Origin: an uncultured Bacillota bacterium
GTDB taxonomy: Bacteria; Bacillota; Clostridia; Christensenellales; Borkfalkiaceae
Length of the DNA stretch: 33,137 nucleotides
Assembly (NCBI GenBank): GCA_949287815.1
Contig: CASEHS010000023.1
Span: 1-33,137 of the forward strand
Direction: 5' to 3'
Below the pieces are notes generated by a model. It worked only from the letters and a program-made list of their open reading frames with translations, did no database searches and had not been told where the DNA came from. Made by a program: the position numbers and the translations under genes. Of this stretch, positions 17,396 through 20,720 are shown one piece after another. Numbering within the stretch: the stretch's first letter is position 1; every line of letters begins with the position of its first letter.

Positions 17396-18488
17396 AATCA
17401 AAATAAGGCAGATCTGCTTTTTGTTTGCGGTCATGATGCCTGTTACAAAAATGCTCGTCTATCCCACAACACTCACTTATTATGTAAAAAACGACCTCTT
17501 GATTTCGGCGTTTTGCAACCTTCTTATCGAGGGCGTGATCGTGGGACTGATCATGCTGCTCGCAAAAAAAACGGACAAGTCGTTCTTTTCTCTGATAGAA
17601 GACCGCTTCGGCAATCTGACGGCAAGGATCGTATACGCAGTCTGCGCATTATTCTTTTTTGCTTCCGCGCTTTTGCCGCTCGCAGAACAAAAACTGTTTG
17701 TAATGCAGGTATTTTATGAAAACGTACCTTCTATCATCTCCTTTGCGCCTTTTTTCTTCGTTTGCTTTTTCGCCTGCACAAAAGGTTTTAAAAGTATAGG
17801 AAGAGCGGCAGATCTGTGTCTACCCGTTTTTGCCGTATCTTTTACCGTAATACTTCTGTTATCACTGCCGCACGCCGATTTTTCCGCGCTGCTGCCCATC
17901 ACAGCCGTTTCGCCTCTGACCATAGGCAAAGGCAGTCTTTTTTCCGTCAACTGGTTTACCGACTGTTTTTTCCTTTTGTTTTTCCTCGGAAATTTCAAAT
18001 ACGAAAAAAACGCGTCAAAAAAAGTGATACTGTCTTTTGCGGCGGGTGCATTTTTTATTCTTATCTTTCTTGCCGTATTCTACGGAGTTTTTGCAGACAT
18101 CGCAATACGTCAACAGAACGCCATTGCGCAACTTCCGAAATACACTACCGCATTCACCTCACTCGGAAGGCTCGACTACCTCTTTTTGTTTGCGCTTACC
18201 CTCGTTATGATTTTTTACCTTTGCGTGCCTATTCAGCTTTGCGTGCATTGCATTTGTAAAACATTTAAAAATTGCAGACCGACGCTGCCCTCTCTTGCCG
18301 TAAATGCAGCCATGCTCGGACTTGTCATTCTGCTCAACCGTTCCTTTAACGAATTGCAAACATTTCTGACAAGTCAGGCTTGGTTTGTCTTTCTGATTTT
18401 TGCATATCTCTTACCCGTTCTCGCACTGCTTCTTCCGAAAAAAATTCTGCCTAAGTATAAAAACAAGAAGGAGAAGCTCTATGAATAA
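17388..18488 (+). CDS. gerAB: Spore germination receptor subunit B (GerAB family)
   Basis: Integral membrane subunit of the germinant receptor, related to amino acid permeases of the APC superfamily, and the subunit that binds germinant in studied cases. It has 366 residues with about ten hydrophobic helices spread over the whole length and a short basic tail. Conserved GerAB features include PLAEQKLFVMQVF near residue 98 and the helix around LPVFAVSFTVILLLS. AAAGGAGG precedes the ATG by 6 nt. It overlaps gerAA at the start and gerAC at the end by 8 nt each, a sign of translational coupling. Which germinant it binds cannot be told from sequence. Confidence 0.92.
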   Translation: MDKIKIRQICFLFAVMMPVTKMLVYPTTLTYYVKNDLLISAFCNLLIEGVIVGLIMLLAKKTDKSFFSLIEDRFGNLTARIVYAVCALFFFASALLPLAEQKLFVMQVFYENVPSIISFAPFFFVCFFACTKGFKSIGRAADLCLPVFAVSFTVILLLSLPHADFSALLPITAVSPLTIGKGSLFSVNWFTDCFFLLFFLGNFKYEKNASKKVILSFAAGAFFILIFLAVFYGVFADIAIRQQNAIAQLPKYTTAFTSLGRLDYLFLFALTLVMIFYLCVPIQLCVHCICKTFKNCRPTLPSLAVNAAMLGLVILLNRSFNELQTFLTSQAWFVFLIFAYLLPVLALLLPKKILPKYKNKKEKLYE

Positions 18489-19704
18489 GTTATGGATGCG
18501 AATATTTATCTGCGGGGCGTGCGCTTTATTACTGCTCTTCTTTTCAAACGATTTCGGGCTGATCGATATTCAGGAAACGGCAATCGTTATCGCCATTGCC
18601 ATAGATAAAGGCGAAGAAGAAGGAAAATTCGACGTTTCCGCTCAGATCGCCGTTCCTGCGGGAACGGGCACGGGAACGGCAGGAAACGTGACCGTTACAG
18701 GCGCTTCTACCGTAGGCGAAGCAATCACCGAACTCAACCATAAAACGGGCTGGTACCCTACACTTGTACACTGTAAACTCGTTCTTTTAGGCGAAGAAAC
18801 CACCCGCGAAAATGTTTTTGAAATTCTTGACTACTTTTTAAGAAGTGAATTGGTGGAAGATACCTGTCTCGTCGGCGTATGCGAAGGGCTTGCCAAAGAC
18901 GCGTTCAAAGCGACTTCTCCCGTAAAAGATATTTCAAGTTCCGCGATCTCCAAGGTATTGTCCTCAGAAGCTCAGAAAACAGGTCTTATTTCAGTTACCA
19001 ACCTCAAAGACTTTGCCAAAAATTATTATTCTGTTTCAGGCGGCGGATTTCTCCCCTTTATTGCCGTAAAGCAGGAAGCGGAAAGCCAGGGCGACGACCA
19101 GGCGCAAAAACCTGTCTTCAATGGAAAAATAAATTCGGAAATTTCTCCGGTGTCGTCTGAGGGTGCAAAAAGCGGCGAAAAGAAATCTGACGTATTCGAC
19201 GCGTCTCGGACAATGCTTTTTCAAAACGGAAAAGGTGTGGCGCTTCTCACCCCCGATGAGACGCTAGCTTTCAATATGGCGGACACCCCTACCGACTATG
19301 CGTTCGGAAATATAGAGGTAGATGAAAAGGACGGCAAAGTGGTTTACGATCTGAAAATGAAAATCACTAAAAAATCCGCTCAGCTTTCTTTTGAAAACGG
19401 AAAACCTGTCTTTACTTTCCGCATCCGCGCCCAAGCAAAAATTATCGACGCTAATAAATCGGACAGTATCCTGATGATCACTCAATCGGCACTCGTACCC
19501 GAACAAGTACTCAACGCCGCCGAAGAAAAATTCAAAAAAGAATTATCTTCCGCATTTGAAAAATCGGCAGCCGCGGGATGCGACCTTTTCGGCATGAAAA
19601 TGCAACTCTACCGTTTCCACCATAAAAAATACAACGCTTATAAAAATACCATTTTAAACCGCGTTGAAACAAGGTACGATATCCGCTTCTCCGCTTTAAA
19701 ATGA
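18481..19704 (+). CDS. gerAC: Spore germination receptor subunit C (GerAC family), no lipobox
   Basis: Third subunit of the germinant receptor, lying on the outer face of the spore inner membrane. It has 407 residues. The N-terminus has one hydrophobic segment (about 7-22), then IQETAIVIAIAIDKGEE, which aligns with the IEDLAIVTAIGIDK region of GerAC. The C-terminal domain ends in AEEKFKKELSSAFEKSAAAGCDLFG, the expected helix. Typical GerAC has a lipobox Cys just before that region (GCWD). Here the equivalent stretch is FFSNDFGLID with no Cys, so the protein is probably held by an uncleaved anchor. The ATG has AAGGAG upstream and sits inside the end of gerAB. Confidence 0.9.
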   Translation: MNKLWMRIFICGACALLLLFFSNDFGLIDIQETAIVIAIAIDKGEEEGKFDVSAQIAVPAGTGTGTAGNVTVTGASTVGEAITELNHKTGWYPTLVHCKLVLLGEETTRENVFEILDYFLRSELVEDTCLVGVCEGLAKDAFKATSPVKDISSSAISKVLSSEAQKTGLISVTNLKDFAKNYYSVSGGGFLPFIAVKQEAESQGDDQAQKPVFNGKINSEISPVSSEGAKSGEKKSDVFDASRTMLFQNGKGVALLTPDETLAFNMADTPTDYAFGNIEVDEKDGKVVYDLKMKITKKSAQLSFENGKPVFTFRIRAQAKIIDANKSDSILMITQSALVPEQVLNAAEEKFKKELSSAFEKSAAAGCDLFGMKMQLYRFHHKKYNAYKNTILNRVETRYDIRFSALK

Positions 19705-19745: not shown

Positions 19746-19773
19746 TTGACAAAGTAAAAATCCGTGTTATAAT
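19746..19773 (+). promoter_or_regulatory. Strong sigma-A promoter with no protein gene behind it
   Basis: TTGACA and TATAAT with a 16-bp spacer, and TGT just before the -10 box (TGTTATAAT) gives an extended -10. The expected start is near 19780. The next convincing protein gene is over 700 bp away behind a terminator and its own promoter. Confidence 0.85.
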
Positions 19774-20056
19774 AAAATTGACCAAAGGGAAAAAATACAA
19801 TCAGATTTTCCCTCGGTACAGCTTTCATAGCGGAGCACGGAACGCTCCTCGCGGCAAAGTGCAGAGTTTGCTCGGGTATCAGCGCTGAACGGACAGACAA
19901 AGCAAAAAGAACAAAGGAAAAGGGAAGGCTTTTCCGCCGCAGGATGTCGGGAAGCAAAGCCGCCGGATTCTTGTCTCACACTTGGGCAATCGGAAAAGAT
20001 GACCGCATGATAAATCAAGAATTTGTGCAGCCCGCACCGCGACGAGGAGGTACTGT

Positions 20057-20089
20057 ATGTACAAGTCCGATTTAAGAAAACTTGCTTAA
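20057..20089 (+). CDS. Possible 10-residue mini-ORF inside the RNA candidate
   Basis: Encodes MYKSDLRKLA. GAGGAGG lies exactly 6 nt before the ATG, an ideal spacing. The ATG lies in a GTAC / GTAC mini-hairpin. It is either translated or a structural RNA motif that looks like a ribosome binding site. Confidence 0.25.
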   Translation: MYKSDLRKLA

Positions 20090-20104
20090 ATGGAGGGCGG
20101 TCCA

Positions 20105-20131
20105 ATGTACTATGTAACTTCGGAGACGTAA
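20105..20131 (+). CDS. Possible 8-residue mini-ORF inside the RNA candidate
   Basis: Encodes MYYVTSET. GGAGGG lies 7 nt before the ATG, and the site begins just past the stop codon of the preceding mini-ORF. Evidence is limited to this spacing. Confidence 0.22.
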   Translation: MYYVTSET

Positions 20132-20259
20132 AGTAAGACAAAACCGTATAAGCGGAATACCGTGCGCTCTGCAGGCGCGAAGATTTTCTGCAATTTTAAG
20201 AATTTGAACGGAAAAGCAATGTCTTTGGCAGTCTCTTAAAACTGAATATATGAAAATTT

Positions 20260-20289
20260 ACCCGCAAGCGCTTTTGCCTTGCGGGTTTT
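20260..20289 (+). terminator. Intrinsic terminator of the RNA candidate
   Basis: The stem ACCCGCAAG / CTTGCGGGT with loop CGCTTTTGC is followed by TTTGATTTG. Its downstream arm is the first unit of the tandem repeat that follows. Confidence 0.8.
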
Positions 20290-20353
20290 GATTTGTCTTG
20301 CGGGTTTTGATTTGCCTTGCGGGTTTTGATTTGTCTTGCGGATTTTTATTTTG
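20278..20353. repeat. Four-copy 19-bp tandem repeat grown from a terminator arm
   Basis: The unit CTTGCGGGTTTTGATTTGY occurs at 20278-20296, 20297-20315 and 20316-20334, followed by a degenerate copy at 20335-20353. Copies 1 to 3 differ only at the last base. Each contains the 3' arm of the terminator stem plus its T-rich tail, so each could pair with the single 5' arm at 20260-20268. No spacers separate the units, so it is not a CRISPR. The remainder up to 20437 shows nothing notable. Confidence 0.85.
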
Positions 20354-20466: not shown

Positions 20467-20492
20467 AAAAGAAACGACAGGAGGTACTGCTT

Positions 20493-20720
20493 ATGGGCAA
20501 AAATGCAAAAGGCTATCTTAACGCGAGATTAGGATGGCTGATCAATCTGATTCTGGCAATCCTTCCCCCGACAAACTGGATTTTGGGCGGGATCACCCGC
20601 ATACAGCGCGGACATCTGATTGCGGGCGTATTGCAACTGCTTTTGATCGGCGAAGTGTTTTTCTTCTTTGCTGACCTGATCACCGTGATTTTGAGCGGAG
20701 ATCTGAGAATATTTGCATAA
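20493..20720 (+). CDS. Small membrane protein (TM2-like)
   Basis: A 75-residue protein with two hydrophobic segments: WLINLILAILPPTNWILGG (residues 14-32) and GVLQLLLIGEVFFFFADLI (near 45-63), joined by the short loop ITRIQRGHLIA. The arrangement, with a glycine/arginine loop and ADLITVILSG at the end, resembles TM2-type small membrane proteins, but the usual HRFYLG motif is absent, so the resemblance is weak. AGGAGG lies upstream of the ATG. It has its own promoter and a perfect terminator, so it is a single-gene unit. Function unknown. Confidence 0.75.
   Translation: MGKNAKGYLNARLGWLINLILAILPPTNWILGGITRIQRGHLIAGVLQLLLIGEVFFFFADLITVILSGDLRIFA

What the first reader, a model, noticed from the sequence alone, without database searches (positions are those of the whole stretch)
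19746..20292. Promoter-terminator unit of about 510 nt with no credible protein: candidate large structured RNA next to the gerA operon
A near-consensus extended -10 promoter and an intrinsic terminator bracket a region with several local stems and no plausible long plus-strand ORF. It is large for a bacterial small RNA and does not show the landmarks I know of tmRNA, RNase P RNA, SRP RNA or T-box leaders. Its place right after spoIIE and gerAA-AB-AC raises the idea of a role in sporulation or germination. That link is inference from position only.
Basis: partly seen in the sequence, partly recalled or inferred. Interest (0 to 1): 0.7.

Follow-up and report, generated by a model that had tools for sequence, protein, structure and literature searches.

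The report
Structured RNA carrying tandem micro-ORFs
A roughly 500-letter bacterial RNA of unknown function is conserved in about half of the genomes searched from one family of gut bacteria, folds into a conserved shape, and carries a row of ribosome start sites for peptides of only about 2 to 20 amino acids, an arrangement we could not match to any described RNA.

Summary
The promoter-terminator unit is real (perfect TTGACA-N16-TATAAT, extended -10; hairpin terminator) and conserved. The genome groups with Candidatus Borkfalkia. Rfam has no match; tmRNA and 6S lie elsewhere in the genome. Models find the locus in 35 of 40 genus genomes and 211 of 398 family genomes (training sequences included), once in 209 of the 211, and not convincingly outside the family. 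It holds two tandem ORFs with strong Shine-Dalgarno (SD) sites, 10 and 8 codons here. ORF1 (M[Y/F][K/R]SDLRKLA) evolves like a protein: a sliding test over the RNA picks only ORF1, in frame. In other genera the RNA mostly carries three or more SD-led ORFs, down to two codons (MH*, MY*). Their frames stay open and about 10 codons long while the peptides drift, and a covarying stem overlaps the last ORF. Most likely it is a stand-alone regulatory RNA whose folding is gated by ribosomes on the micro-ORFs. Transcription, translation and function are untested; the sporulation link is only partial synteny.

The parts
19746..19773 (+). promoter: TTGACA-N16-TATAAT with TG extended -10
   Evidence: 12 of 12; perfect in 30 of 30 genus loci
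19780..20289 (+). predicted RNA, about 510 nt (start inferred 7 nt after the -10 element)
   Evidence: promoter, terminator and conservation; no transcript seen
19787..19812 (+). 5' hairpin P1 (GGGAAAA...UUUUCCC)
   Evidence: 6 of 7 pairs have compensatory changes in 32 sequences
19814..19819 (+). CGGUAC, proposed long-range partner of GUACUG at 20050-20055
   Evidence: CGGUAC in 33 of 33 genus transcripts, paired in the consensus fold; invariant, so covariation cannot test it
19879..19888 (+). palindromic loop UCAGCGCUGA, candidate self-kissing (dimer) site
   Evidence: a 6-nt palindrome of one of four sequences in 33 of 33 genus RNAs; the four strings were chosen from the alignment
20046..20055 (+). 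SD of ORF1 plus spacer (GGAGGUACUG)
   Evidence: GAGGTACTG invariant in the 33 sequences of A1, which were selected with that string; L034, left out there, has GGGGTACTG; only two GGAGGTACTGN{0,4}ATG in the genome
20057..20089 (+). ORF1, MYKSDLRKLA*
   Evidence: synonymous-change excess: 0 of 1000 column permutations; only this ORF passes in a scan of the whole RNA
20092..20103 (+). SD2 module GGAGGGCGGUCC (GGA/UCC mini-hairpin) before ORF2
   Evidence: helix 1 pairs in 99% of cells but hardly varies; CCRATGNAC start class
20105..20131 (+). ORF2, MYYVTSET* (10 codons in most relatives, MYxFxxGTVK*)
   Evidence: 8-10 codons in 35 of 35 genus loci, BLOSUM 19 of 1000, synonymy 146 of 1000; frame open against the two others; start ATG to GTG in L034; not picked by the scan
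20122..20127 (+). end stem, 5' strand, inside ORF2
   Evidence: covarying
20231..20236 (+). end stem, 3' strand
   Evidence: covarying
20238..20248 (+). conserved tail AAAACUGAAUA (ACAACUGAAUA in most other-genus sequences)
   Evidence: near-invariant in A1 and A3
20260..20289 (+). intrinsic terminator hairpin and U tract
   Evidence: hairpins at the same place in relatives

Best explanation
A stand-alone RNA from a strong vegetative-type promoter whose shape is gated by ribosomes. Shown by sequence: the promoter; a conserved, covarying RNA; two tandem micro-ORFs here and mostly three or more in sister genera, with strong SDs; the stop of one usually 12 or 15 nt before the next AUG in g1 and g10; the last ORF running through a stem that pairs with the RNA's 3' end. 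Inferred: ribosomes load on ORF1 (in genus g10 its AUG sits in a covarying hairpin with the SD in the loop), terminate and reinitiate on ORF2, melt the end stem while reading its last codons, and so switch the 3' tail (ACAACUGAAUA) between two states. The RNA would thereby report or buffer the initiation capacity of the cell, and the micropeptides are mostly by-products; ORF1's peptide in Borkfalkia is the exception and may act itself, for example in the exit tunnel. A palindromic loop suggests that the Borkfalkia RNA also forms a homodimer (inferred).
For: Family-wide locus: 66 of 358 genomes outside the genus match model R1 at E 0.001 or better, where chance gives under one (counted from the rows); 211 of 398 match R2, 44 of whose sequences trained it. 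SD-led ATGs exceed the highest of 20 dinucleotide shuffles: g1 83 against 28 (33 RNAs), g10 118 against 32 (37), g3 129 against 33 (28), median ORF 10 codons. Coding signal at ORF1: 5 of 314 windows pass, all overlapping ORF1 in its frame. Without selecting on length, the frame is open: sequences with a stop in the next 7 codons, frame 0 / +1 / +2: last ORF g1 0/13/8 of 31, g10 2/20/10 of 36, g3 1/13/16 of 27; g10 ORF-b 0/18/2 of 32. Outside g1 the amino acids are mostly unconstrained, as expected if the act of translation matters. Stop-to-next-AUG 15 or 12 nt in 31 of 33 g1 and 28 of 35 g10 RNAs. Structure on A1: 95.0% of cells paired against 34-50% when slid, covariation 0 of 500 shuffles. 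End stem, own against swapped strand: g3 0, g1 6, g10 42 of 2000. g10 start hairpin 0 of 2000.
Against: No RNA-seq, ribosome profiling or phenotype. In L105 the last AUG is ACG and in g3 the same module appears as ACUCCAACG inside an ORF, so the start module may have a role other than initiation. Many SD-like cores have no start behind them: 89 of 163 (g1), 110 of 158 (g10) and 138 of 210 (g3) are followed by ATG/ACG/GTG within 2-16 nt. ORF1-like peptide constraint is not seen in g10 ORF-b (562 of 1000, 571), and ORF2 does not pass the scan. Frame +2 is nearly as free of stops as frame 0 in g1 ORF1 (3 of 27) and g10 ORF-b (2 of 32). In g3 the stop-to-AUG distance is not constant. Sequestration of SD1 by an upstream pyrimidine stretch was not supported (11 of 30 shuffle sets as low). 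In L008 ORF1 lacks its stop and fuses in frame with ORF2. The A1 structure was derived from the same alignment, which favours it over slid versions. The RNA was not found in 5 of 40 genus genomes or in about half of the family, though assemblies are incomplete and the models weak there.
Confidence: 0.5

Rival explanations
1. A polycistronic micropeptide mRNA: the 2-20 aa peptides themselves are the products and the RNA folds only to tune their translation.
For: ORF1 in Borkfalkia is under clear peptide-level selection, with length changes by whole codons; ORF2 weakly so (BLOSUM 19 of 1000); recurring motifs in g3 (DTPT, RYFNKE); open frames.
Against: Column-permutation tests find no amino-acid constraint in g10 ORFs or in g3 ORF-b and the g3 last ORF (RYFNKE core borderline, 42 of 1000); first ORFs of 2-5 codons (MH*, MK*, MDR*) are too short to be plausible peptides; covarying stems overlap the ORFs.
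Confidence: 0.2
2. A non-coding ribosome or initiation-factor decoy: tandem SD-AUG modules capture 30S subunits; the short ORFs only let ribosomes fall off quickly (minigene-like), with no gating of structure.
For: Multiple strong SDs (duplex -6, the cut-off, to -14 kcal/mol); SD-like cores without a start behind them; two-codon ORFs; an unusual start module CCRAUGNAC; a strong promoter.
Against: The end stem and start hairpin covary, and ORF1's codons are selected at the peptide level in g1, which a pure decoy does not need.
Confidence: 0.17
3. Leader or attenuator of the next gene: the micro-ORFs are leader peptides that control terminator read-through.
For: Micro-ORFs followed by an intrinsic terminator resemble attenuators; in the window a 75-aa gene follows with a similar SD.
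Against: The 75-aa gene was matched in no other locus fetched; its orthologues (37 of 40 genus genomes, own included) lie on other contigs in the rows compared and do not share the SD; in this window it has its own promoter-like site (10 of 12); downstream genes differ among the loci of other genera looked at.
Confidence: 0.04
4. A divergent known housekeeping RNA, or a sponge for CsrA.
For: Single copy, strong promoter, many GGA motifs (27-35 per kb).
Against: No Rfam match; tmRNA and 6S found elsewhere in the same genome; no csrA hit in the own genome, which is about 90% complete. RNase P and SRP RNA were not searched genome-wide.
Confidence: 0.04

Closest known systems
Dual-function regulatory RNAs (RNAIII with delta-haemolysin, SgrS/SgrT, SR1/SR1P; recalled)
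   Same: Stand-alone structured RNA from its own promoter that also carries an SD-led ORF.
   Different: Those carry one ORF of tens of residues; here two or more tandem ORFs of 2 to about 20 codons, mostly without peptide-level conservation. No trans target is known.
Translated minigenes, e.g. mg2 in axe-txe (PMC8708949; passages of abstract, introduction, results and discussion seen)
   Same: SD-led two-codon ORF with its stop 15 nt before the next start; frame and distance matter there.
   Different: Those act in cis on a real gene within an operon; here the whole transcript consists of such ORFs and ends at a terminator.
Ornate large RNAs OLE, ROOL, GOLLD (PMC12286853; passages seen)
   Same: Large, elaborate bacterial RNA; a palindromic loop whose sequence switches between palindromes, the kind of evidence used there for symmetric kissing loops.
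   Different: No Rfam match; here micro-ORFs; roughly 300-770 nt by genus; dimerisation untested.
Peptide-leader attenuators (trp, erm; recalled)
   Same: Tiny ORFs whose translation would rearrange stems next to a terminator.
   Different: No conserved downstream gene; the promoter and terminator delimit an independent unit.
tarsal-less/polished rice polycistronic micropeptide mRNA of insects (recalled)
   Same: One former 'non-coding' transcript with several tiny ORFs.
   Different: Eukaryotic, with conserved peptides; here peptide conservation is clear only for ORF1 in one genus.

Membership tests
Any Rfam 15 family | score at or above gathering threshold | tested here: not met
   0 matches in the window; three matches at E 0.18-9.7 at the terminator, all below gathering
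tmRNA / 6S RNA | match to RF00023 / RF00013 at this locus | tested here: not met
   own-genome matches over the cut-off lie at G000:C24:9900-10273 and G000:C9:437-623
Dual-function regulatory RNA | an ORF under protein-type selection | tested here: met
   ORF1 in genus g1; not met for the g10 ORFs
Dual-function regulatory RNA | conserved secondary structure | tested here: met
Dual-function regulatory RNA | regulates a target in trans by base pairing | not testable with these tools
   no transcriptome; no target search was made
Translated minigenes | SD-led ORF of 2-6 codons | tested here: met
   first ORF of 2-5 codons in 21 of 21 g10 and 13 of 13 g3 loci (found by the motif CC[ACG]ATG, not by SD; one search finds most of them by SD); not in the window itself, whose ORFs have 10 and 8 codons; translation not shown
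Leader/attenuator | conserved downstream gene in the same orientation | tested here: not met
CsrA-sequestering RNA | csrA in the genome | tested here: not met
   own genome about 90% complete
OLE/ROOL/GOLLD | match to their Rfam models | tested here: not met
   (all 4227 families of the library)
Homodimeric kissing-loop RNA | palindromic loop that changes between palindromes | tested here: inconclusive
   33 of 33, four sequences; but the four were picked from the alignment, and other palindromes also occur in the region
Homodimeric kissing-loop RNA | dimer observed | not testable with these tools
   needs a native gel, mass photometry or cryo-EM

The most novel reading that the evidence does not exclude
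A new kind of bacterial RNA machine: a family-wide stand-alone RNA built as a row of ribosome landing sites with micro-ORFs, in which translation itself, not the peptides, is the function. Ribosomes walking from one micro-ORF to the next remodel a covarying fold, and the RNA thereby senses or tunes translation initiation, in Borkfalkia possibly as a homodimer.
Probability: 0.35. Interest if true: 0.92.

Novelty: categorically new. Interest (0 to 1): 0.8.

Why it matters
It would be a transcript class that annotation pipelines easily miss: ORFs of 2-20 codons fall below usual gene-caller limits (recalled), and screens for structured RNAs may drop candidates with coding signal (the workflow of PMC8040213 does, passages). 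The RNA is mostly single-copy, strongly promoted and found in about half of 398 genomes of a gut family, with no described function. If ribosome passage is the point, it offers a natural, testable device for reading the translation state through RNA folding. It also gives an evolutionary case in which one micro-ORF shows peptide-level selection in one genus while related ORFs are kept open without it.

Tried and rejected
Single-sequence folding: not informative on the plus strand. Low-threshold Rfam hits: terminator-like chance. CsrA sponge: no csrA. Anti-SD sequestration of SD1 in g1: not supported. The downstream 75-aa gene as a trans target because it alone shares GGAGGTACTG-ATG in the genome: orthologues lack it. 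Sporulation co-occurrence with spoIVA: uninformative, 145 of 151. Peptide-level selection in g10 and g3 ORFs: mostly not found. The counts of stops are not used: those sets held only ORFs of fixed length, so absence of stops was built in, done on re-check without that selection, replaces them. Sequences with indels inside ORF1 (and L008) were left out of the permutation sets. The one BLAST match outside the genus below E 1e-4 (G058, 2.0e-5) is not at that genome's RNA locus and is taken as chance. L140 (g8) was dropped as a likely false hit; L123 and L139 (g14, different promoter, an upstream gene) were left out; 9 of 111 loci gave no promoter plus end and were dropped, and a few ends there were set too early (e.g. 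L114, L130, L143). The first run of that analysis used a wrong spacer pattern and is void. L064 (Proteiniphilum) matches the pattern by chance. A P4 helix had no consistent register and is not claimed.

Full report
WHAT IS THERE. Between gerAC (18400-19704; Pfam Spore_GerAC) and a 75-aa ORF (20493-20720) lies a unit with a perfect sigma-A type promoter (19746-19773, 12 of 12, TG extended -10) and a GC-rich hairpin with a U tract at 20260-20289. No plus-strand ORF of 60 aa or more lies between them. The plus-strand fold is no more stable than shuffles (z -1.22). Rfam finds nothing at gathering score.

RELATIVES. The DNA itself matches 33 of 39 other genomes of the genus at E 1e-4 or better. A degenerate pattern that leaves the ORF1 codons free, run over 84,980 species genomes, returned 33 loci: one chance hit in Proteiniphilum and 32 others. 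Six of the 32 bear a Candidatus Borkfalkia species name; 31 of the 32 have contig lengths equal to those of genus loci fetched, and L051 shows the same ORFs. The genus is therefore taken as Candidatus Borkfalkia; family Borkfalkiaceae and order Christensenellales are recalled. Covariance model R1, built from 33 genus sequences, matches 35 of 40 genus genomes (33 of them gave the training sequences) and 143 of 398 family genomes at E 0.1; outside the genus 66 of 358 match at E 0.001 or better, where chance gives under one (counted from its rows). Sequence-only model R2, from 44 sequences of several genera, matches 211 of 398 at E 0.001, in 7 of 18 genera, training sequences included; two genomes (G282, G286) have two matches, the others one. 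Over 396 genomes drawn from the order, 25 match at E 0.01: 22 in the family and three outside at E 0.0035-0.0098, about what chance gives. At this sensitivity it is an RNA of one family. tmRNA and 6S lie elsewhere in the same genome.

TANDEM MICRO-ORFS. In 30 of 30 first genus loci the same perfect promoter is followed by a 5' hairpin, a variable domain, then GAGGUACUG-AUG (ORF1) and, after ORF1, an SD and UCC[A/G]AUG (ORF2). Over 35 genus loci ORF1 is 10-12 codons in 34 and fused in frame to ORF2 in one (L008); ORF2 is 8-10 codons in 35, starting with GTG in L034. In ORF1 0.66-0.73 of changed codon pairs are synonymous, and none of 1000 column permutations reaches this or its BLOSUM score (14 and 19 distinct sequences; those with inner indels left out). 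ORF2 is weaker (19 of 1000 by BLOSUM, 146 of 1000 by synonymy). As control I slid the test over the 30-sequence alignment of the whole RNA: of 314 windows of 24 columns, 5 pass (at most 1 of 200 permutations on both measures, no stop), and all 5 overlap ORF1 in its frame; ORF2 does not pass. ORF1 is therefore very probably a real coding sequence in this genus.

OTHER GENERA. Of 40 loci fetched outside the genus, 37 have a perfect extended -10 promoter upstream, and the transcripts hold more micro-ORFs: g10 mostly three (first 2-5 codons such as MDRKA*, MH*; then for example MKNPIYLKIK*; then MYYQLKGAEK*), g3 three to eight SD-led starts, some nested (MHK*, MIPSHLEAEA*...DTPT......RYFNKE..., MN....G..K*), the one g18 locus four (MQ*, MK*, MKKIYGRKIS*, MAHILKG*); the two g8 RNAs and the one g5 RNA show one or two. 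In 102 transcripts (of 111 loci tried, 9 dropped) SD-led ATGs number 83 in 33 g1, 118 in 37 g10 and 129 in 28 g3 RNAs; the highest of 20 dinucleotide shuffles is 28, 32 and 33; the median ORF is 10 codons; 8 of 83, 0 of 118 and 1 of 129 ORFs exceed 30 codons. Outside g1 the peptides are mostly unconstrained: BLOSUM permutations at least as high 260 (g10 last ORF), 571 (g10 ORF-b), 250 (g3 last), 221 (g3 ORF-b) and 42 (g3 RYFNKE core) of 1000. Yet the frames stay open. Without selecting on length, sequences with a stop in the next 7 codons in frame 0, +1, +2 are 0, 13, 8 of 31 (g1 last ORF), 2, 20, 10 of 36 (g10 last), 1, 13, 16 of 27 (g3 last) and 0, 18, 2 of 32 (g10 ORF-b), and last ORFs are 8-11 codons in 32 of 32 g1, 33 of 36 g10 and 26 of 28 g3 RNAs. 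For ORF1 and g10 ORF-b frame +2 is nearly as open, so there the contrast rests on frame +1. The start context CC[A/G]AUG, mostly followed by NAC, marks 33 of 72, 68 of 110 and 47 of 126 SD-led micro-ORFs against 0 of 16 longer ORF starts that I picked from the window. In L105 the last AUG of this module is ACG, and in g3 an ACG form lies inside an ORF, so the module may have a second role; and many SD-like cores have no start behind them.

STRUCTURE. On alignment A1 the consensus structure forms 95.0% standard pairs against 34.2-50.4% when slid by 1-3 columns, and its covariation score is reached by 0 of 500 shuffles; the structure came from the same alignment, which favours it. The 5' hairpin has compensatory changes in 6 of 7 pairs. 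The end stem pairs bases near the end of the last ORF with the bases just before the conserved tail A(C/A)AACUGAAUA. Pairing each RNA with its own partner strand is stronger than with swapped partners in g3 (0 of 2000 permutations), g1 (6) and g10 (42). In g10 the AUG of ORF-b sits in a covarying hairpin with its SD in the loop (0 of 2000). In g1 a loop region holds a 6-nt palindrome in 33 of 33 RNAs, of four sequences (GUGCAC 23, AGCGCU 8, UGCGCA 1, GCGCGC 1); palindrome-to-palindrome change is the type of evidence used for symmetric kissing loops (PMC12286853, passages). The four strings were chosen from the alignment, so this is suggestive only.

INDEPENDENT UNIT. GerAC ends 0.3-0.7 kb upstream of ORF1's SD in the loci of 20 genus species; in three species it is downstream on the other strand; the rest are undetermined in the stretches fetched. 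In g10 and in the one g5 locus a GerAC-like or SpoIIE-like gene is often the neighbour, and in several g3 loci an unrelated gene is (names from reading the translations). Downstream genes differ. The neighbouring 75-aa gene shares ORF1's SD string, the only other copy in the genome, but its orthologues do not. It is therefore unlikely to be a leader of a fixed gene.

MECHANISM. Stops lie 15 or 12 nt before the next AUG in 31 of 33 g1 and 28 of 35 g10 RNAs; in axe-txe a two-codon minigene ends 15 nt before the next start and its translation affects that gene (PMC8708949, passages). Together with the end stem that a ribosome on the last ORF must open, the reading I find most likely is a ribosome-gated RNA: load, terminate, reinitiate, melt the end stem, alter the 3' tail. 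All of these steps are inferred from sequence. Rivals are peptides as products (best for ORF1 in Borkfalkia) and a plain 30S decoy.

NOVELTY. I found no equivalent in Rfam or in the literature searches named (listings; three papers seen in passages); most subscription papers are not in that library. I call it categorically new for its architecture, while its function is open. The sporulation idea stays possible but unsupported beyond position.

Noticed in passing
window 20273-20351: Four tandem copies (19-nt unit) of the terminator's 3' arm and U tract (TTTGCCTTGCGGGTTTTGA).
   Followed up: no
window 20480-20495: The 75-aa gene downstream starts with GGAGGTACTGCTTATG, the only other copy of ORF1's SD string in the genome; its orthologues in the genus lack it.
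   Followed up: yes
L008 (ORF1 to ORF2): ORF1 lacks its in-frame stop and reads through into ORF2 as one 26-codon frame.
   Followed up: no
G282 and G286 (genus g10): Two model matches in one genome, the only such genomes among the 211 with a match.
   Followed up: no
L123 and L139 (genus g14): Variant with a less perfect upstream promoter, a short lipoprotein-like ORF before it, and an extra SD-like module.
   Followed up: no
own genome G000: No csrA match; the genome is about 90% complete.
   Followed up: partly
genus genomes G015, G020, G030, G031: Their spoIVA matches cover only the C-terminal part of the model (from position 147-220 on), while G000 and G005 match it almost fully.
   Followed up: no
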